A stretch of DNA of 64,000 nt from Streptomyces drozdowiczii (GTDB lineage: Bacteria; Actinomycetota; Actinomycetes; Streptomycetales; Streptomycetaceae). The stretch is from positions 5,890,001-5,954,000 of the forward strand of contig NZ_CP098740.1 in NCBI RefSeq assembly GCF_026167665.1, written 5' to 3'. The notes under the pieces were generated by a model. The model had not been told where the DNA came from and did not search any database. It saw nothing but the letters and a program-made list of their open reading frames with translations. This document shows positions 42,453-55,487 of this stretch, one piece after another; positions within the stretch are counted from its first letter, which is position 1; each line of letters opens with the position of its first letter. The position numbers were made by a program, and so were the translations under genes.

Positions 42453-43874
42453 ATGTTCGATCCGTTCATAGCGCCGAGCGGCACCCTGCTCGGGCTGCTC
42501 CAGAGAGGCCGCGGCGACGGCACCCTCCACGCGCTCGCCGCACCGCGCTCCGAGGCCCTGGCGGCCCTCAACCACTGCGTCCTGAGCGACCCGCGCCACG
42601 ACTGGCAGGTGGAGAACCGCTCCCTGTACTACGCGCGCCTCTACCTCGACCTCGACGGCGGCACCGAGGAGATCGAGCGGCACCTGACCGACCCCGAGGA
42701 CCACCTCGACACCGAGGACTCGCGGACCGGGCTCGCCCTGTCCGTCCTCGGCCACCTCGCCTCCTACGGGCGCGCCGACGCCCTCGTCCTCCTGCGGCGC
42801 TACGCCGCGACCGGCTCCAACTGGGCCTGGGCCCTGGACGAGCTGGCCCTGCGCGACGACGACGCCGGACTCCGCTCCCTCGCCGAGCCCGTGCTCGCCC
42901 GTTTCCCCGACGACCCCGAGGGCCGCGCCGAGCTGGCCGCGACCGTCCGGGACGCCTACGAGCCCCGCCCCTGGCGGCTCTGGGCCGACGACCCGCGCGA
43001 GGCGGTCGGCGCCCGCGTCCGGGCCGCGTCCGAGCAGGGGTCCTTCGACCGCTGGCAGCGCCAGATGCGCCCCGGCGGCCCCCGGCCCGGCTGGAGCGTC
43101 CAGGCGGTCTTCGACTGGGCCCGGCAGGGCCTGGAGCGCGGCAGCGTGCTGCATGTGCCCGCCGCCCGCTGCCTCGCCGCCGTCGCGGGCCCCGAGGACC
43201 GGCCCGAGATCGTCGAGGCCGCCCGCAGCGGACCCGACGCCGCCCGCTGCGCCGCCCTCCACTATCTGGCCGCCGAGGTCCGCGACCCCGCCGTGCTCGA
43301 CCTGATCGAGGCCGCCGCCACCGAACCCCGGGGCACCGTCCCCGACGCCGCCGTCGCCGCCTTCGAGCGGATGTGCGGCGAGGACGCCGTGGAGCGCGCC
43401 CGCCGCTGGGCCCGCAGGCCCGACGCCCTCGGAGCCTCCGCCGCCGGCGTGCTGGCCGGACGCGGCGGCCCGCAGGACGCCCCCGCGGTGCTCGGCGCGC
43501 TGCGCGACGCCGTACGCGGCGACGGACCCGACGCGCCACGGCTGTGGGCGCTCGTGGACGGCGCCGGCCGCCTCGGCATCGCCTGCGCCGCACCCGTACT
43601 GCGCCACATCTACCGGGAGACGTCCTCCTCGCAGCTGCGCGGCCGGACCGCCCGGGCCCTCGCGGCCACCGATCCGTCCTTCGCCACCGGGTTCGCCGTC
43701 GAGTGCCTGTGGGACTGCGAGGAGACGACCCGCGAGGTCGCCGCCCGCCACGCCGAGACCGGTGACCTCCGCGTCGCCGAGCGGCTGCGCCGCCTGGCCG
43801 CCGACCCCGCCGAGGAGGCCGAGGTCCAGTCCGCGGTACGCAGCAGGATCGGCCCGGACGCCCCGGCGGTCTGA
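42453..43874 (+). CDS. HEAT-repeat protein
   Basis: A 473-aa cytoplasmic alpha-solenoid. After an N-terminal region beginning MFDPFIAPSGTLLGLLQRGRGDGTLHALAAPRSEAL, repeats of the HEAT type follow (PAARCLAAVAGPEDRPEIVEAARSGPDAARCAALHYLAAEVRDPAVLDLIEAAATEP, then LRGRTARALAATDPSFATGFAVECLWDCEETTREVAARHAETGDLRVAERLRRLA). No enzyme motif is present. It probably serves as a scaffold or binding protein. It lies between an ankyrin gene and the hydantoinase gene. Confidence 0.85.
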   Translation: MFDPFIAPSGTLLGLLQRGRGDGTLHALAAPRSEALAALNHCVLSDPRHDWQVENRSLYYARLYLDLDGGTEEIERHLTDPEDHLDTEDSRTGLALSVLGHLASYGRADALVLLRRYAATGSNWAWALDELALRDDDAGLRSLAEPVLARFPDDPEGRAELAATVRDAYEPRPWRLWADDPREAVGARVRAASEQGSFDRWQRQMRPGGPRPGWSVQAVFDWARQGLERGSVLHVPAARCLAAVAGPEDRPEIVEAARSGPDAARCAALHYLAAEVRDPAVLDLIEAAATEPRGTVPDAAVAAFERMCGEDAVERARRWARRPDALGASAAGVLAGRGGPQDAPAVLGALRDAVRGDGPDAPRLWALVDGAGRLGIACAAPVLRHIYRETSSSQLRGRTARALAATDPSFATGFAVECLWDCEETTREVAARHAETGDLRVAERLRRLAADPAEEAEVQSAVRSRIGPDAPAV

Positions 43875-43975: not shown

Positions 43976-47605
<3,630 letters not shown>

Positions 47606-47675: not shown

Positions 47676-49201
47676 GTGACTTCGCCTGCCTACACGGACA
47701 ACGCTGCGCCCCAGCTCAGCGCGGGGCCGCGGCCCGCACCGGGCCCGGCCGCCGACGAGGGGCTGTCGCGGCGGCTGCGCGCGCTCGCCTGCACCGCGCC
47801 GCTGCACGACCTGGACGTGCGCAAGGCGAACCTCGCCGGTGAGTACAGCGGGTACGCGATGGCCGAGGTCGCCCTCGCCGCCATCGACCACGTCACGCTC
47901 AACATGGACTTCGACACGGGCGCGGACCACGACCAGATAGTGACCAGGCTCCTCCCGCGCGTCGCCGCCCAGGCCCCCTCCCGCCCCGCCGCCGAGCACG
48001 AACGGGTCGCCCGCTGGGTCCTGGAGAACCTGATCAACGTCGGCAGCGTGGACCGCGGATTCCGCGCGGTCTACGGCACCTTCGGGCCCGACGGCGTCTA
48101 CGTCCGCCGCGACTACGACTTCAAGCTCATCGAGGAGGTCCCCGGGCACGGCGGCAGCGTCTATCTGCGGGCCACCGACGAGGCGGTCAACGTCCTGGTC
48201 GGCGCCCTCGACACGGACGTCACCAGCGCCCAGATCGCCGCCGAGGTCAAGCTGGAGGTCCTGATCAGCCGGGGCCGCCTCGCCGACGCCCAGCTCGCCG
48301 CCGAACAGGCCCGCTACCGGACCGTGCAGTACGCGGAGACGCTGCGCAAGACGCTCGACGCCACCCGCCGCAACGTCCGCGCGGTCGACTGGCTCAACGC
48401 CGTGCCCGACATGATCGCCGAGGCCCTGGACCACGTCGCCGACCGCTACCGCCACGAGAACGCGATCCTCACCAACATCCGCAAGGCCCGCGACGAGGCC
48501 GAGGACCCCGAGCACAAGCGCCGCGCCGCCGAGCTGGTCGACATCGTCAAGGACTGCATCCGCCGCCACACCCAGCTCCAGTCCCGGCTCCTGGAAGCAG
48601 GACCGCTCTTCCGCGCCGAGCAGGACCGCCAGGCGTTCGCCGCCCCCGCCGCCCGCTCCGGCCTCGACCTGTACGGACAGCTCCTCGGCCCGCTGCTGCC
48701 GCTCCCGGTCGAGCAGGCGAGCCGCGCCACCGACGCCTTCTTCGCCCACGGCACCGGCCTGCGCACCCCGGTCTCCGTCCGGGTGGGCGACCTGGTCGAC
48801 CTGCTCCTCAGCCCGCCCCCGCCCGCGAACACCTCGGCGCCGAGATGCCCGAGCCGGACCTGATCGCCACCCCCGACGACAGCCGCTTCAGCGAGGAGCA
48901 GCTGGCCGCCGCGATGGAGCTGCTCGACCTGGAGCACGACGCGCCGCGCCGCCTCTCCGGCCTCCTCGCCGACGCCCGCCGCCGCGACCCCGACCTGCCC
49001 TACCTCGTCGCCCTGCTCGCCGTGCACGCCGCGAGCCCCCCGGTCGGCACCGCCTACCGCCAGGGCGAGCGCCGCCTGCTGTTCTCCGTGGACGACGGCA
49101 CCCCGCTGGACGACGAGGAGTTCGGCGGCGCCGACCTGATCGTCGGCACGGCCCTGCTCGACGCCGCCGGCATGGCCGCCGACCGCACGGAGGCGCCGTG
49201 A
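47676..49201 (+). CDS. Kleisin-like (MksF/JetA-like) subunit of an SMC-type complex, split by an apparent 1-nt deletion
   Basis: Read as two frames, 47676-48863 (395 aa) and 48845-49201 (118 aa), but one added C in the run 48816-48820 joins LVDLLLSPPP to AREHLGAEMPEPDLIATPDD seamlessly, giving 508 aa, the length expected for MksF/JetA-type kleisins. The protein is helical and charged, with an N-terminal part (LACTAPLHDLDVRKANLAGEY), a middle coiled-coil (SAQIAAEVKLEVLISRGRLADAQLAAEQARYRTVQYAETLRKTLDATRRN) and a C-terminal winged-helix-like region (SPPVGTAYRQGERRLLFSVDD). No enzyme motif. It is the first gene of an operon with a small-subunit candidate and an SMC-like ATPase. The kleisin role is inferred from order, size and coiled-coil layout, not from a direct motif match. 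Confidence 0.7.
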
Positions 49202-49259
49202 CAGCCCCGGGCCCCCGTACCACCTTCCGCAACACCATCCGCACCGAGGAGCCAGTGTC

Positions 49260-50180
49260 GTGAGCGACCACCGCGCAGAGCACGCCGACGCGTGGAGCGA
49301 GCCCGCCGACCGGCCCGCCCCCGCCTACGAGCCCGACCGCCCGGCGCCCGCACCCGCCGCCGTCACCCCGGCGGACGCGGCCGACGCCGCCCGGCTCGTC
49401 GCCTTCGGCCTCCAGCCCAAGCTGCTCCCCGCCCGCGACGCGGAGTACGCCGAACTGCTGCGCCGCTACCGGGACGACCCCGCCTTCGCCCGGCTCGCCG
49501 ACGCCGTCGCCACCGGCCTCGGCCTCATCGTCCTGGAGGTCTCGCCCCGGGCCGGCATGGCCGTCACGGCGGGCGAGGACTCCGTCTTCGCCGTCCGCAT
49601 GGGCGACTACGCGCGCCGCGCCTCCTCGGACAGCGCCGACCGCTTCCTGCACGGCCTCGCCCATCTCGCCGTCGCCGCCATGGCCTTCCCGCGCCCCGAG
49701 GACCTGGCCGACGACGCCTACATCGGCCGGATCACGGTCAACGGCGTCGACGCCTTCGTACGCCAGGCGTGCGACCGCCTGGAGCAGCGCGCCGAGGAGC
49801 AGGGCGACAACACCGACCCGGCCAGTGACGCCCCGGGCCTGGAGGCCGGCTGGCGCGTCTACGCCCGGCGCAGCGCCACCGGCGCCACCAAGGACGCCCG
49901 CCGGCTCGCCGGATCCACCACCGGCATCATCGGCAAGGCCGTCGCCTTCCTCACCGACTCCGGCTTCCTCCAGCGCACCGGCGACGACGCCGGAGGCACG
50001 TACCGCACCACCGCCCGCTACCAGCTCCAGGTCCGCGACATGGCCGGCAGCGCCGCCATGGCCGAACTCCTCGACCTGGGCGTCGTCCCCGTCACCGACG
50101 GGAGCGCCACGCTGCTGCCGCCCCCGGACCCCGACGACCTGGAACTGGTGGCCGACGCGGGCCTGCCGTTCCACGGCTGA
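49260..50180 (+). CDS. MksE/JetB-like small-subunit candidate of the SMC-type complex
   Basis: A 306-aa cytoplasmic protein. The N-terminal ~45 residues are Pro/Ala-rich and probably disordered. What follows (LVAFGLQPKLLPARDAEYAELLRRYRDDPAFARLADAVATGLGLIVLEVSPRAGMAVTAGEDSVFAVR) has the size and helix/beta mix of a tandem winged-helix (kite) subunit, and a second winged-helix-like stretch ends with VAFLTDSGFLQRTGDDAGGTYRTTARYQLQVRDM. It lies between the kleisin candidate and the SMC-like ATPase, as MksE/JetB do. GTG start. The role is inferred mainly from gene order. Confidence 0.72.
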   Translation: MSDHRAEHADAWSEPADRPAPAYEPDRPAPAPAAVTPADAADAARLVAFGLQPKLLPARDAEYAELLRRYRDDPAFARLADAVATGLGLIVLEVSPRAGMAVTAGEDSVFAVRMGDYARRASSDSADRFLHGLAHLAVAAMAFPRPEDLADDAYIGRITVNGVDAFVRQACDRLEQRAEEQGDNTDPASDAPGLEAGWRVYARRSATGATKDARRLAGSTTGIIGKAVAFLTDSGFLQRTGDDAGGTYRTTARYQLQVRDMAGSAAMAELLDLGVVPVTDGSATLLPPPDPDDLELVADAGLPFHG

Positions 50181-50237
50181 CCGCCGCCCGCCACCGACGC
50201 CCTCCCCCCGCTCCCAGAACGACGAGAGTCCGCCGCC

Positions 50238-53200
50238 ATGTACGAGCTGTCCCGGGTCCGCCTCTACTCCATCGGGCCGGCCGGCGCACGCTACGCCGAC
50301 ACCGTGCTCGACCTGCGCGGAGTCGGCGAGCCCGTGCCCCGCCCCGCCCCGGCGCAGGCGGAGTTCTTCGAGGACGAGCCGGTCGGCCCGCCGCGCCGCC
50401 CCGCCCCCGCGGGCGTCCTCTTCCTGGAGAACGGCGGCGGCAAGTCCGTCCTGCTGAAGCTGATCTTCTCGGTGATGCTCCCGGGCCACCGCAACACCCT
50501 CGGCGGCGCCAGCTCCGGCGTGCTGCGCAAGTTCCTGCTCGCCGACGACTGCGGGCACGTCGCCCTGGAATGGCAGCACACCCTGACCGGCGAGTGCGTG
50601 GTCGTCGGCAAGGTCAGCGAGTGGCGCGGGCGCCAGGTCTCCAACGACCCCCGGAAGTTCGCCGAGGCGTGGTATTCGTTCCGGCCCGGCCCCGGGCTCG
50701 GCCTGGACTCGCTGCCCGTCGCCGAGTCCACCGCCGTCGGCCGCCCCGCCGAGGGCGTCTCCGGCGCCCGCGGCCGCCGCCGCACCATGAAGGGCTTCCG
50801 CGACGCGCTCACCGAGGCCGGGAAGTTCTACCAGCACCTCGACGTGCACTGGGAGGAGATCCACGACCGCTGGAACGAGCACCTGGGCGACCTGGGCCTC
50901 GACCCCGAACTCTTCCGCTACCAGCGCGAGATGAACGCGGACGAGGGCGAGGCGGCCGGCCTCTTCGCGGTCAAGAAGGACTCCGACTTCACCGACCTGC
51001 TGCTGCGCGCCGTCACCGACACCCGCGACACGGACGGCCTCGCCGACCTCGTCAGCGGCTTCGGCAACAAGCTCGGCCGCCGCGCCGAACTCACCGCCGA
51101 ACGCGACTTCACCGCCGGCTCCGCCGACCTCCTCGGCCGCATCGTCGAGGCCGCCGGGACCCGGGCCCGCGCCCGCGACATCCACGCCGGATCCGAGCGC
51201 CGCACCCGCACCCTCGCCCGCCGCCTCTCCGCCCGCGCCGGCGAGGAGCGCGGCCGGGCCGCCGAGCTGGCCCAGCAGGTCACCTCCGCCGCCCACACCG
51301 TCACCGGCGCCGAGGAGACCCGCGGCCGCTGCGCCCTGATCGCCGCCGAACTCGCCTACCGGCACGCCTCGCTGGCGCTCACCGCCGCCGAGAGGAGCGC
51401 CGCCGCCCAGCGCCGCGAACTGGGCGACGCGCGCACCCTGCACTCCGCCTGGCAGGCCGCCGAGGCCGTGCTGCGCCACCGCGCCGCCGCCGACCGCTCC
51501 GCCCGCGTCGCCGCCGCGATCCGGGAGGCCGAGCGGGACGCCGCCCCCGCCCTCGCCGCTCGCGCGAGCGCCGCCGCCGACCTCGTACGAGCCCTGCACA
51601 CCGCCGCCGAGGCGGGCGAGAGCCGGGCCAACGAGGAGGAGGAGCGCTCCGACGCCCTCCAGAGCGCCGGCGAGGCCGCGCACCGGGACGCCACCACCGC
51701 CGCCACCGAGGCCCAGCGCGCCCGCAGCGAGGCCGGACACCTGCGCCAGCGCCTCGCCGAGGTCGAGCAGGAGACCGCCGAGGCCGTCCGGGCCGGCTGG
51801 CTGGACGACACCGCGCCGCACGCCGACCCGGCCAGGGCCGCCCTCGCCGCCAACGACGCCGAACAGAACGCCGTCGCCGCCTGGGACACCGCCCGCGAGG
51901 CCGCCGGAGCCGCCGCCGACCGGGCCCGCCAGGCCACCGCCGACGAGTCCCGCGCCGAACTGGCCGCCGCCCGCGCCGCCGACGCCGCCCGCGCCGCCGA
52001 GCAGGCGTACGAGGCGGAGCTGAGGGCCGCCGACTCGATCGCCGCCGAACCCCGCCTCGCGGAACTGCTCGGACTGTCCGCCGACCGGACCGGCGCGGTG
52101 CCCCGCCCCCGGCAGGCCGCCGCCGACGCCCCGTACGGGCACGACGAGGGGCCGGCCCCCGCACCGGCCGCCCCGGACGGAGCCGAACCCGCCCCGCACG
52201 GCGCGCCCTCCGCCACCGCAGCCCTCCCCGGGCCCGCCGGACAGGCCCTCACCGCCGACGAGTTCGACCGCAGCGCCGACGAACTGCGCGAACTGCTCGA
52301 CCAGAGCGTCGCCTCCGCCGAACGGCGCCTGTTCGAACTGCGCACCGCGGCCGCCGACGACGCCCGCATCCTCGGCGCGCTCGGGGACGGCGGCCTCCTC
52401 CCGCCCAGCCCGGACGTCCTGGCCACCGTGGAATACCTCGGCGAGCAGGGCATCCCCGCCCTCCCCGGCTGGCGCTACCTCGCCCAGGCCGTCGACCCCG
52501 CCGACCACGCGGCCGTCCTCGCCGCCCGGCCCGAGCTCGTGGACGGCGTCGTCATCACCGACCCCGACGCGCACGCCCGCGCCCGCGACGTCCTCGGCGC
52601 CGCCGCCCTGCTGCCCCGGTCCGCCGTCGCCGTCGGCACCGCCGCCGCCCTCCTCGCGCCCGTGCCCGACCCCGGCACCGGCACGTCAGGGCCCGGCGAG
52701 AGCGTCTTCCTCGTCCCGCCGAACCCGGCCATGCACGACGAGCACGCCGCCGACGAGGAGCGTCAGGCGCTGCGCAGCCGGGCCGCCGCCCGCGACGAGG
52801 ACATCCGGGTGCTCGCCGCCCGCCTAAGCGCCGACCGCGCGCTCGCCTCCCGCATCGGCTCCTGGCGCGCCGACTGCCCGCCCGGCATGCTCGCCGAGCT
52901 GGCCGAAGCCGCCGCCACCGCCCGCACCGCCGCCGAGACCGCCGAGGCCGCCCTCGCCGAGGCCCGCACGGTCCGCGCCGAGGCCGACGAGGCCGCCGCC
53001 GACACCGCCCGGGTCCGCGAGGAGCGCCAGGAGGCCGCTCAGCGCGCCCGCCGGGCCGCCGACGCCCTCGCCGGACTCGCCTTCCGGCTGCGCGAACGGG
53101 CCGGCTGGCAGGCCAAGCTCCGCGAACTGACCGACGAGGCGGCGGAGAGCGAGGCCCGCGCCACCGTCTTCCTGGAGCGCGCCCGCGCCGCCGACGAGGA

Positions 53201-55022
53201 CCGCCGCGCCGCCCAGCGCGCCGCCGACGACGCCCGCCGCACCGCCCGCGCCCTGCGCGCCGAACGCGCCGAGATCGCCGGCGCCCCCGAACACCTCCCC
53301 GACCTCGGTGAGGACGCCCCGCGCCAGGCCCTGCCCGCCCTGCGCGAGGCGTACCGGGCGGCGTCCCAGCTGTACGAGAAGGTGGGCGTCGGCGCCGACC
53401 TGCGCGCCGAGCAGGCCCGCGCCGAGAGCGACGAGAGCGCCGCCCTCGCCGAGCTGGACCGCCTCACCAACAAGGTCCGCACCCGGGCCGCCCAGCTCCT
53501 GGAGGGCACCGACGGCGCCGACGGCCCCTCCCGGCAGGCCGCCGCCGCCCGCGCCGAATCCCTCGTCCAGCTCCTGGAGACCCGGGCCTCCGCCGCCAGT
53601 GAGCAGCTGGGCCGACTGCGCGGCGAGGCCGAACGCCTGGCGCCCGCCGACGGCGAGAGCCTGCACACCGAGCTGCCCGCCGACCGGGTGCCCGCCGACG
53701 CCGAACAGGCCCAGGCCCTGCTGCGCACCGCCACCGCCGAGCTGGCCGCCGCCACCGCCGCGCTGGACACCGCCCGGGCCGCCCACGCCGAGCTGCTGCA
53801 CGCCCACCGCGCCGCCGAGGACGCGGCGGGCGGCTTCGACGAGACGGCCGCCCTGCTGCGCGACCTGCTCAGGGACCACGGCGCCGACGACGACCCGGAG
53901 GAGCCCGAGCCGTACCCGGGCAGCCTGGAGGAGGCCCGGCAGTCCGCCGCCGAGGCCCGTCGCTCGCTGCGCGGCTGCGCCGCCGACCTCTCCGCCGCCG
54001 AAGCGGCCGTCCGGGAGGCGAGCGACGTCCTCGTACGGCACGCCAACTCGACCCGCTACGAGCAGGTCCGCACCCCGGCCCGGCAGCAGATCCGCGAACT
54101 GCCCGCCGCGGCCCTCCCCGAGCACGCCGAGAAGTGGGCCGCCGCCTTCGCGCCCCGGCTGCGCGTCCTCACCGACGAGCTGGCCCAGCTGGAGCGCAAC
54201 CGCGACTCCATCGTGGACCGGCTGCGCGGGCTGGTGGAGTCCGCGCTGACCACGCTCCGCTCCGCCCAGCGGCTCTCCCGGCTCCCCGAGGGCCTGGGGG
54301 AGTGGTCCGGGCAGGAATTCCTCCGTATCCGCTTCGAGGAGCCCGACCAGGCAACGCTGACCGACCGGCTCGGCGAGGTCATCGACGAGGCGACGCGGGC
54401 GGCCCTCCGGAAGAATTCCGACCTGCGCCGCGACGGCATGTCGCTGCTGCTGCGCGGGGTCCAGGCGGCCCTGGAGCCCAAGGGCGTCGCCGTCGAGATC
54501 CTGAAGCCGGACGCCGTGCTGCGCGCCGAGCGCGTACCGGTCGGTCAGATGGGCGACGTCTTCTCCGGCGGCCAGCTGCTCACCGCCGCCATCGCCCTGT
54601 ACTGCACGATGGCCGCCCTCCGCAGCAACGACCGGGGGCGTGACCGCGCGGAGCACCGGCACGCGGGCACGCTCTTCCTGGACAATCCGATCGGCCGGGC
54701 CAACGCCACCTACCTGCTGGAGCTCCAGCGCGCGGTGGCCGACGCGCTGGGCGTACAACTGCTGTACACCACCGGCCTGTTCGACACGACGGCCCTCGCG
54801 GAATTCCCGCTCGTCATCCGGCTGCGCAACGACGCGGACCTGCGCGCCGGGCTGAAGTACATCAGCGTCGAGGAGCACCTGCGCCCCGGGCTGCCGCAGC
54901 AGGACCCCGGCGCCGAGACGGTGCACGGCGAGATCACCGCCACCCGCATGTTCAAGCGCGGCGCCCCGGCCCCGAGGACCCCCGACGCGTCCGAGACCGT
55001 CGAGGAGGCCAGGACCTCCTGA
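50238..55022 (+). CDS. SMC-like coiled-coil ATPase (MksB/JetC-like), 1594 aa, atypical Walker motifs
   Basis: A bipartite ATPase split by two long coiled coils. The N-terminal head has the P-loop in LFLENGGGKSVLLKLIFSVM (Lys69, Ser70), with Leu where the first Walker Gly should be. Coiled coil 1 runs from about 290 to 680, a globular hinge-like domain from about 705 to 840 (YLGEQGIPALPGWRYLAQAV, DGVVITDPDAHARARDVLG), coiled coil 2 to about 1420. The C-terminal head has the ABC signature FSGGQ (1442-1446) and Walker B LFLDNP (Asp1482) with Asn1483 in place of the catalytic Glu. Coiled coils are extremely Ala/Arg/Glu-rich. This is the layout of MukB/MksB/JetC. No topoisomerase-type nuclease gene follows. 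Third gene of the operon, 57 bases after the small-subunit candidate. Confidence 0.88.
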   Translation: MYELSRVRLYSIGPAGARYADTVLDLRGVGEPVPRPAPAQAEFFEDEPVGPPRRPAPAGVLFLENGGGKSVLLKLIFSVMLPGHRNTLGGASSGVLRKFLLADDCGHVALEWQHTLTGECVVVGKVSEWRGRQVSNDPRKFAEAWYSFRPGPGLGLDSLPVAESTAVGRPAEGVSGARGRRRTMKGFRDALTEAGKFYQHLDVHWEEIHDRWNEHLGDLGLDPELFRYQREMNADEGEAAGLFAVKKDSDFTDLLLRAVTDTRDTDGLADLVSGFGNKLGRRAELTAERDFTAGSADLLGRIVEAAGTRARARDIHAGSERRTRTLARRLSARAGEERGRAAELAQQVTSAAHTVTGAEETRGRCALIAAELAYRHASLALTAAERSAAAQRRELGDARTLHSAWQAAEAVLRHRAAADRSARVAAAIREAERDAAPALAARASAAADLVRALHTAAEAGESRANEEEERSDALQSAGEAAHRDATTAATEAQRARSEAGHLRQRLAEVEQETAEAVRAGWLDDTAPHADPARAALAANDAEQNAVAAWDTAREAAGAAADRARQATADESRAELAAARAADAARAAEQAYEAELRAADSIAAEPRLAELLGLSADRTGAVPRPRQAAADAPYGHDEGPAPAPAAPDGAEPAPHGAPSATAALPGPAGQALTADEFDRSADELRELLDQSVASAERRLFELRTAAADDARILGALGDGGLLPPSPDVLATVEYLGEQGIPALPGWRYLAQAVDPADHAAVLAARPELVDGVVITDPDAHARARDVLGAAALLPRSAVAVGTAAALLAPVPDPGTGTSGPGESVFLVPPNPAMHDEHAADEERQALRSRAAARDEDIRVLAARLSADRALASRIGSWRADCPPGMLAELAEAAATARTAAETAEAALAEARTVRAEADEAAADTARVREERQEAAQRARRAADALAGLAFRLRERAGWQAKLRELTDEAAESEARATVFLERARAADEDRRAAQRAADDARRTARALRAERAEIAGAPEHLPDLGEDAPRQALPALREAYRAASQLYEKVGVGADLRAEQARAESDESAALAELDRLTNKVRTRAAQLLEGTDGADGPSRQAAAARAESLVQLLETRASAASEQLGRLRGEAERLAPADGESLHTELPADRVPADAEQAQALLRTATAELAAATAALDTARAAHAELLHAHRAAEDAAGGFDETAALLRDLLRDHGADDDPEEPEPYPGSLEEARQSAAEARRSLRGCAADLSAAEAAVREASDVLVRHANSTRYEQVRTPARQQIRELPAAALPEHAEKWAAAFAPRLRVLTDELAQLERNRDSIVDRLRGLVESALTTLRSAQRLSRLPEGLGEWSGQEFLRIRFEEPDQATLTDRLGEVIDEATRAALRKNSDLRRDGMSLLLRGVQAALEPKGVAVEILKPDAVLRAERVPVGQMGDVFSGGQLLTAAIALYCTMAALRSNDRGRDRAEHRHAGTLFLDNPIGRANATYLLELQRAVADALGVQLLYTTGLFDTTALAEFPLVIRLRNDADLRAGLKYISVEEHLRPGLPQQDPGAETVHGEITATRMFKRGAPAPRTPDASETVEEARTS

Positions 55023-55037: not shown

Positions 55038-55487
55038 TCAGGCCCGCGACAGGCGGCGGTCCGCGCCCCGGTGGCCTATCCGGGCAGCGTCCCGCTGCGC
55101 GGCGCGGGCCTCACGCCGCGCCCTGCGCCGCTCGCGGCGCAACTGCCGGGCCGAGCTGCTGGGTTCGGAGACCACGCCGTTGCGCTGGTTCCAGACCTGG
55201 CGGGTGACCCAGACGTCCAGCACGGCCCAGGTCGCCACCACCGTGCTCGCCACCCCGGTCAGCACCATCGGGAAGGAGAGCCAGGACCCGGCCATCGCGG
55301 TCAGGAACGCCACCATCGCCAGGATCATCGTCAACGACATGACGAGCACCGCACGCACCGCCGCCGTCCGCACCGGATCGGGCATGCGCCTGCGCGTCGC
55401 CGGCTCCTCCACCCACAGAGGCTGCCGCCCCGGCTCGCTCACATCCCCCACCGGCTCCACCGCGCCCTCACGCTCCTGTGTGTCCAA
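55038..55487 (-). CDS. Small membrane protein of unknown function
   Basis: A 149-aa protein with two membrane helices (AVLVMSLTMILAMVAFLTAMAGSWLSFPMVLTGVASTVVATWAVLDVWV, about 46-94) and a very basic, Arg/Ala-rich cytoplasmic tail (RQLRRERRRARREARAAQRD). The start is uncertain: the frame opens at TTG 55487 with a possible GGGAG site, but in-frame GTG or ATG codons lie further in. It is convergent with the SMC-like gene and divergent from the conservon. Function unknown. Confidence 0.75.
   Translation of the reverse strand: MDTQEREGAVEPVGDVSEPGRQPLWVEEPATRRRMPDPVRTAAVRAVLVMSLTMILAMVAFLTAMAGSWLSFPMVLTGVASTVVATWAVLDVWVTRQVWNQRNGVVSEPSSSARQLRRERRRARREARAAQRDAARIGHRGADRRLSRA

What the first reader, a model, noticed from the sequence alone, without database searches (positions are those of the whole stretch)
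47676..55022. Condensin-like three-gene operon without a JetD-like nuclease
Seen: a helical ~508-aa protein (after repair), a 306-aa two-domain protein and a 1594-aa bipartite ATPase with P-loop at the N terminus, FSGGQ signature at the C terminus and ~400-residue coiled coils on both sides of a hinge-like domain, all on one strand with short gaps. Known: MksBEF and Wadjet JetABCD share this order (kleisin, kite, SMC), and Wadjet defends against plasmids with JetD as nuclease. Inference: this is a divergent MksBEF/Wadjet-like complex. The next gene (55038-55487) is a membrane protein on the other strand, so any nuclease partner is missing or encoded elsewhere. It may serve chromosome organisation in multigenomic hyphae or act in defence with an unknown effector.
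Basis: partly seen in the sequence, partly recalled or inferred. Interest (0 to 1): 0.85.

Follow-up and report, generated by a model that had tools for sequence, protein, structure and literature searches.

The report
Nuclease-less Wadjet-type SMC complex of Streptomyces
Streptomyces and their relatives almost all carry a DNA-looping motor complex that descends from a plasmid-killing defence system but has lost the DNA-cutting part, which suggests a defence machine turned into a housekeeping one.

Summary
The three-gene operon is real. The SMC protein matches PADLOC's Wadjet type III JetC3 (1410 bits) and the kleisin matches JetA3. Predicted folds of the first two proteins are nearest to MukF and MukE/JetB, the latter weakly. 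So it is a Wadjet type III derivative, not an unclassified Mks.

The missing nuclease is not a local accident. JetC3 matches 195 of 199 Streptomyces genomes and 80 of 81 Streptomycetaceae genomes, 17 of 17 genera. JetD3 reaches 150 bits in only 14 of 199. In all 14 it overlaps the end of a divergent jetC of its own, and none of 80 core loci has it in the flanks held. The window's genome has none.

JetD-less copies group together in JetC and JetA trees (split support 0.91, UFBoot 73, and 0.99), with a second, Frankia-like family. ATPase motifs are intact; dN/dS is 0.05-0.22.

Best reading: a housekeeping DNA-looping complex exapted from anti-plasmid defence. Function is inferred, not shown. In this genome the kleisin gene carries a frameshift not seen in 77 of 77 relatives.

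The parts
47676..48863 (+). jetA3-like kleisin gene, 5' part (ORF listed from TTG 47646; GTG at 47676)
   Evidence: PADLOC JetA3 PDLC00567, 530 bits, profile 7-375; an intact relative's model is nearest to MukF
48845..49201 (+). jetA3-like kleisin gene, 3' part, in another frame (one base shorter than two aligned relatives near 48820)
   Evidence: PADLOC JetA3 PDLC00567, 89 bits, profile 376-495; both halves in one ORF in 77 of 77 core relatives that hold the gene
49260..50180 (+). jetB3-like kite gene, 306 aa; Pro/Ala-rich N-terminal tail and C-terminal LPFH
50238..55022 (+). jetC3-like SMC ATPase gene, 1594 aa; Walker A at residue 64, FSGGQ at 1442, LFLDNP at 1479; Pro/Ala-rich insert around residues 607-671
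   Evidence: PADLOC JetC3 PDLC00588, 1410 bits; motif conservation; insert lengths

Best explanation
The operon encodes a kleisin-kite-SMC complex (JetA3-JetB3-JetC3) that descends from Wadjet type III. Its lineage lost the JetD nuclease gene early, most simply once, before the Streptomycetaceae diversified. (Shown: family, absence of JetD, near-universal conservation; folds supported.) It most likely works as an ATP-driven loop extruder or DNA clamp on the host's own DNA, as a second chromosome-organising complex beside SMC-ScpAB. By loss of JetD it would have become MksBEF-like, in parallel to what is proposed for P. aeruginosa MksBEF. (Inferred: activity, substrate and role.) The conserved C-terminal LPFH of JetB may dock a partner in trans in place of JetD (speculative). 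In this particular genome the jetA reading frame is broken as sequenced, so the local copy may be non-functional, or the break may be a sequencing error.
For: JetC3/JetA3 family matches. Model folds nearest to MukE/JetB and MukF. JetC3 in 195 of 199 Streptomyces genomes and 80 of 81 Streptomycetaceae genomes, 17 of 17 genera. JetD3 with at least 150 bits in only 14 of 199 and 7 of 81; own genome 0 with both JetD models. All 14 genus JetD3 ORFs overlap the end of a divergent jetC on the same strand: 10 by 4 bases, 2 by 14 and 77, and 2 by about 880 because their first in-frame start lies inside jetC. This is the positive control for what a JetD locus looks like. None of the 80 core loci has a JetD3 ORF in the flanks held. 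Separate lineage in trees (split values). ATPase motifs kept in 43 of 43 JetD-less copies aligned. dN/dS 0.05-0.22 in 22 gene pairs. Of 72,556 plasmid records 9 match, all under 60% identity. In 38 single-contig genomes picked from printed rows, 31 have the core jetC at 10-25% of the length from an end (median 0.16), i.e. a fairly fixed place. S. venezuelae smc hupS double mutants are reported as rather mild (PMC8410768, passages), which leaves room for another compactor. The review PMC10586767 (passages) holds that P. [quoted passage not shown]
Confidence: 0.55

Rival explanations
1. Defence with an effector in trans: JetABC still recognises small circular or otherwise foreign DNA and recruits a nuclease or other effector encoded elsewhere, perhaps through the JetB tail or the LPFH motif.
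For: LP[FY]H stands at the JetB C terminus in 100 of 102 core copies and in 0 of 18 JetD-bearing and 0 of 9 Frankia-like copies; the 9 Frankia-like ones all end in DV. The insert in JetC is longer than any JetD-bearing one (16) in 35 of 43 JetD-less copies. ATPase motifs are intact.
Against: JetD_C or JetD3 profiles find nothing in 175 and 171 of 199 genomes. The only recurring co-directional neighbour found is a GntR/FCD-type regulator within 1 kb upstream of jetA in 59 of 117 sequences (Pfam), not a nuclease, and it is absent from the window. The 14 strong JetD3 genes of the genus belong to operons with their own jetC.
Confidence: 0.2
2. Non-cleaving control of mobile DNA: the complex binds or extrudes plasmid or conjugating DNA and lowers copy number or transfer without cutting.
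For: The C. glutamicum complex acts on plasmid copy number (PMC7083940, passages). Streptomyces are rich in linear and conjugative elements (recalled).
Against: In C. glutamicum null alleles of the nuclease gene mksG also have the plasmid effect (PMC10123090, passages), so there the nuclease seems needed. Near-universal presence is unlike patchy defence genes.
Confidence: 0.17
3. A decaying relic of Wadjet type III without function; the frameshift in the window's jetA would be a symptom.
For: jetA is split in this genome; one Streptomycetaceae genome (G494) has its JetC3 match in five pieces.
Against: jetA intact in 77 of 77 core relatives with the gene, dN/dS 0.05-0.22, motifs kept in 43 of 43, presence in 195 of 199 and 80 of 81 genomes.
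Confidence: 0.05
4. JetD was merely missed: it is too divergent for the profiles and lies unlinked in every genome.
For: JetD_C (PF09983) scores type III JetD of Streptomyces only weakly (21-37 bits in 9 of the 14 genomes with a strong JetD3 match) and misses the other 5, so divergence is a real risk.
Against: The type-specific profile PDLC00594 scores 171-410 bits in those 14 genomes, with quite divergent JetC partners, and finds no match in 171 of 199, own genome included. All 14 are coupled to jetC, and no gene is seen coupled to the core jetC.
Confidence: 0.06

Closest known systems
Wadjet type III (JetA3 JetB3 JetC3 JetD3), PADLOC PDLC00567/00588/00594
   Same: JetA and JetC families, gene order A-B-C, ATPase motifs including the DNP of Walker B
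   Different: No JetD3 gene; JetB has a longer N-terminal tail (median 36 against 11 residues) and a C-terminal LPFH; JetC carries a longer Pro/Ala-rich insert in most copies; near-universal instead of patchy
MksBEF of P. aeruginosa (condensin-like, no nuclease)
   Same: Kleisin-kite-SMC set without nuclease; proposed origin by JetD loss (PMC10586767, passages)
   Different: No match to any Pfam family, hence none to those of MksF/MksE (DUF3375, DUF4194; names as given in the finding); role on the chromosome untested here
MksBEFG / Wadjet type I of Corynebacterium
   Same: An actinobacterial complex of the same superfamily beside SMC-ScpAB (PMC7083940, passages)
   Different: Has the nuclease MksG/JetD and acts on plasmids (PMC10123090, passages); the window matches type III models only
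MukBEF
   Different: No significant sequence match to any solved chain

Membership tests
Wadjet type III defence system | JetA3 protein | tested here: met
   PDLC00567, 530 + 89 bits over the two halves; 618 bits for an intact relative
Wadjet type III defence system | JetC3 SMC protein | tested here: met
   PDLC00588, 1410 bits
Wadjet type III defence system | JetB3 protein | tested here: inconclusive
   No PADLOC hit, but of two JetB from JetD-bearing Streptomyces operons one has no hit and one reaches 17 bits; aligned with JetD-bearing JetB in A3, 31-58% identical
Wadjet type III defence system | JetD3 Toprim nuclease gene in the operon | tested here: not met
   None among the neighbours tested, in the flanks held of 80 of 80 relatives, or in the own genome
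Wadjet type III defence system | Restriction of plasmid transformation | not testable with these tools
   Needs an experiment
SMC-kleisin-kite complex (MukBEF-like superfamily) | Bipartite ABC-ATPase SMC with Walker A near one end and signature and Walker B near the other | tested here: met
   Motifs at residues 64, 1442 and 1479 of 1594; coiled coils not computed
SMC-kleisin-kite complex (MukBEF-like superfamily) | Kite subunit with tandem winged helices | tested here: met
SMC-kleisin-kite complex (MukBEF-like superfamily) | Kleisin subunit | tested here: met
MksBEF condensin | Three-gene set without nuclease | tested here: met
MksBEF condensin | Sequence membership in the Mks/JetA1-JetB1 families (DUF3375, DUF4194) | tested here: not met
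   No family above cut-off in any of the four ORFs; the only matches listed were chance ones (PASTA, LemA)
MksBEF condensin | Contribution to chromosome organisation | not testable with these tools
   Needs Hi-C or imaging of a mutant

The most novel reading that the evidence does not exclude
Streptomycetaceae, and separately or together the Frankia-like family, converted an anti-plasmid SMC machine into a core housekeeping genome organiser by dropping its nuclease. This would be a further kind of loop extruder in mycelial bacteria, which may act with a new partner docked on the LPFH tail of JetB and could help explain the mild phenotype of Streptomyces smc mutants.
Probability: 0.4. Interest if true: 0.82.

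Novelty: new variant of a known kind. Interest (0 to 1): 0.62.

Why it matters
How SMC complexes serve both chromosome folding and immunity is an open question (posed in PMC10586767, start of abstract seen). Here one genus holds both states: complete, patchy JetABCD operons and a near-fixed JetD-less complex from the same family. This makes the switch directly testable, for example by Hi-C and plasmid assays of a jetABC deletion in a laboratory Streptomyces. It also means that counts of 'Wadjet' in Streptomyces may include a non-defence complex: PADLOC reports incomplete sets under Wadjet 'other' (PMC9252829, passages), and a DefenseFinder survey finds Wadjet enriched in Actinobacteria and towards Streptomyces chromosome ends (PMC10482375, passages). 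I did not test which loci that survey counted; only 3 of the 38 core loci lie in the outer 10%, so it may have counted mainly others.

Tried and rejected
Pfam and NCBIfam gave no family above cut-off for the proteins. PDB sequence searches gave no match or only weak, unrelated ones. A conserved operon partner was sought by clustering ORFs around 104 core and 9 Frankia-like loci. Shadow ORFs made this coarse (the SMC cluster held only 77 of the 104 core loci). The recurring upstream genes were a GntR/FCD regulator and an MFS transporter, both without a match in the window. The regulator lies on the same strand within 1 kb upstream of jetA in 59 of 117 sequences, so it may regulate or share the operon in many species; I did not follow this. 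The small membrane protein at 55038-55487 was considered as a partner: it matches in 90 of 117 sequences, but where other DNA intervenes after jetC it stays with the NIT-domain kinase (for example L005 and L026), so I rejected it. I first read clade supports off rerooted trees (1.0 and 0.984); these are misplaced by rerooting. The values by split are JetC 0.909, JetA 0.993 and UFBoot 73.

Rows dropped: L121 and L154 (short) and L132 (divergent) were left out of the IQ-TREE run, and every second JetD-less sequence was used. 10 of the 80 named core loci plus the window entered the JetC tree; L139, L125, L127 and L098 had no full JetC and did not. The 38 genomes are single-contig genomes whose core row I read off the printed lists, not all. 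One search printed only part of its match rows, and only part of its genomes without a match. Of the 80 named core loci, two hold under 1 kb behind jetC (L069 681, L029 818 bases), and nine hold less than 10 kb there in all. Of the 9 Frankia-like loci, L115 ends just behind jetC and L119 begins before jetB, so JetD there is tested on one side only.

Literature: searches list no paper on a JetD-less Wadjet III in Streptomyces or Frankia, but only openly licensed papers are held. PMC11329512 (MksB as a mycobacterial condensin) is not held; only its title was seen in a reference list.
Full report
OBSERVATION. The window lies in a 7.39 Mb single-contig genome at C1:5890001-5954000; its closest named loci for the SMC gene are from Streptomyces. 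On the + strand, an interrupted gene (47676-48863 and 48845-49201), a 306-aa gene (49260-50180) and a 1594-aa gene (50238-55022) follow each other, with coding-like GC3. Upstream lies a hydantoinase/oxoprolinase (43976-47605). Downstream lie a small hydrophobic protein on the other strand and a NIT-domain sensor kinase with DUF742 and a small ATP-binding protein.

ABSENCE OF JetD. JetD_C (PF09983) has no match in the own genome, and the type-specific JetD3 profile PDLC00594 (identified) has none either. In Streptomyces at large, JetC3 matches 195 of 199 genomes; of the four misses, two are 78% and 81% complete, the others 91% and 100%. JetD3 matches 28 of 199 at E <= 1e-3, but only 14 genomes score 150 bits or more; the other 14 score 42 bits or less, and 12 of these are also among the PF09983 matches, so they are mostly JetD of other kinds. 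I fetched the surroundings of all 14 strong ones. In every one, the JetD3 ORF overlaps the end of a jetC ORF on the same strand, 10 of 14 by exactly 4 bases. These jetC ORFs score 138-806 bits against the window's JetC, whereas four core copies of the genus score 2536-2640 and those of other Streptomycetaceae genera 1479-2505. In 13 of the 14 genomes the rows printed also show a separate core-like jetC; for G094 no row was printed. So the genus itself supplies the positive control: complete jetABCD operons exist, and the core locus is not one of them. None of the 80 named Streptomyces core loci holds a JetD3-like ORF in the DNA held: up to 10 kb on each side, less on short contigs, under 1 kb behind jetC in two. 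For Streptomycetaceae as a family, JetC3 matches 80 of 81 genomes and 17 of 17 genera, and JetD3 of at least 150 bits is in 7 of 81, each beside a jetC match of its own, a fragment in G370. In one of these, G492, the only JetC3 match is the JetD-bearing one, so that genome may lack the core complex and should be taken off the 80.

DISTRIBUTION. In 296 genomes of the class, 45 have a JetC3 match: 28 Streptomyces, 16 of one other family (f18) and one borderline match. JetD3 matches 19 of 296, 7 of them above 100 bits. Of 19 f18 genomes that I tested, 16 carry nifH above the curated cut-off, against 0 of 3 Streptomyces. Nine f18 loci carry jetB and jetC, eight of them with jetA in the DNA held, and no JetD3 ORF, although one (L115) ends just behind jetC. 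Separate JetD-bearing loci occur in f18 too (L121, L122, L125, L126). On plasmids, no close copy of the core JetC exists among 72,556 records: nine match, all below 60% identity. I opened two. The four-gene operon in Rhodococcus pseudokoreensis has its fourth gene annotated as a Wadjet JetD domain protein, and the Streptomyces europaeiscabiei one has an unnamed gene of that size in that place.

HISTORY AND SELECTION. In the JetC FastTree (61 sequences), all 43 JetD-less copies form one group (split support 0.909), with Streptomycetaceae (34) and Frankia-like (9) groups each at 1.0. In the JetA tree the same split has 0.993. In an IQ-TREE run on 37 trimmed JetC sequences the split has UFBoot 73. 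A single loss of JetD is therefore the simplest account, and two losses are possible. The Walker A, FSGGQ and LFLDNP motifs are kept in 43 of 43 JetD-less copies of that alignment. Nei-Gojobori dN/dS against 7-8 relatives is 0.05-0.17 (jetA, between relatives only), 0.05-0.19 (jetB) and 0.13-0.22 (jetC). In 38 single-contig genomes read off the printed rows, the core jetC lies at a median of 16% of the length from an end: 3 in the outer 10%, 31 at 10-25%, 4 further in.

WHAT CHANGED WITH THE LOSS. JetB of the core lineage has a longer N-terminal tail (median 36 residues before the conserved start, against 11 in JetD-bearing copies; start codons were not refined). Of 102 core JetB, 100 end in LP[FY]H; 0 of 18 JetD-bearing and 0 of 9 Frankia-like ones do, and the 9 Frankia-like ones end in DV. 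The stretch before the hinge-like domain of JetC is 3-229 residues (64 in the window) in JetD-less copies, over 16 in 35 of 43, against 6-16 in 18 JetD-bearing ones. These are candidate sites for new regulation. Nothing shows that they bind a partner.

MECHANISM. Wadjet JetABC is thought to sense circular DNA by ATP-driven loop extrusion and to trigger JetD (PMC10586767, passages). With the motor conserved and the nuclease gone, the likeliest outcome is extrusion or clamping of DNA without cutting. Near-universal chromosomal conservation argues for a host function rather than optional defence. Against this, C. glutamicum MksBEFG, which has its nuclease, does not fold the chromosome (PMC7083940, passages), and smc deletion alone removes arm alignment in S. 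venezuelae (PMC8410768, passages), so any chromosomal role must differ from that of SMC-ScpAB.

THE FRAMESHIFT. The window's jetA is one base shorter than two close relatives in a G/C-rich stretch near 48820. Both halves lie in one ORF in 77 of 77 core loci that hold the gene, and in 115 of 115 loci of all kinds where both halves were found. This is either an error or a recent mutation; it says nothing about the family.

VERDICT. A real and well conserved JetD-less branch of Wadjet type III, near-universal in Streptomycetaceae: a new variant of a known kind. Its family and the missing nuclease are well supported; its function is inferred.

Noticed in passing
window 50238-55022, residues 1479-1490: The Walker B region reads LFLDNP: Asn stands where ABC ATPases usually have the catalytic Glu (recalled). 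DNP is kept in 43 of 43 JetD-less and 17 of 18 JetD-bearing JetC aligned, the last one being truncated.
   Followed up: partly
window 49260-50180, C terminus: JetB ends in LPFHG; LP[FY]H near the C terminus is kept in 100 of 102 core relatives after a variable linker and absent from 18 JetD-bearing and 9 Frankia-like JetB; the latter all end in DV.
   Followed up: partly
G151:C1:66624-67625 and 8038764-8039765; G129:C1:34292 and 8497867; G049:C1:34320 and 10642375: JetD-like genes occur in two equally scoring copies near both ends of Streptomyces chromosomes, as if inside terminal inverted repeats.
   Followed up: no
window 55038-55487 (-): Small hydrophobic protein with WVEEPA and an Arg-rich tail, matched in 90 of 117 sequences; linked to the NIT-domain kinase cluster rather than to jetC.
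   Followed up: partly
L101:2737-3453 and relatives: A GntR/FCD-type regulator lies on the same strand within 1 kb upstream of jetA in 59 of 117 sequences; the window has an oxoprolinase there instead.
   Followed up: partly
window 42453-43874 (+): 473-aa protein with no Pfam or PADLOC family; where found, 74-97% identical in relatives and in varying positions near the operon.
   Followed up: no
L091:10098-12059 and L092:3125-5083: JetD3 ORFs whose first in-frame start lies about 880 bases inside jetC; probably internal starts, not tested.
   Followed up: no
L098 (G057:C1:5296000-5308000): A four-gene type III locus in which jetC is split over two overlapping ORFs.
   Followed up: no
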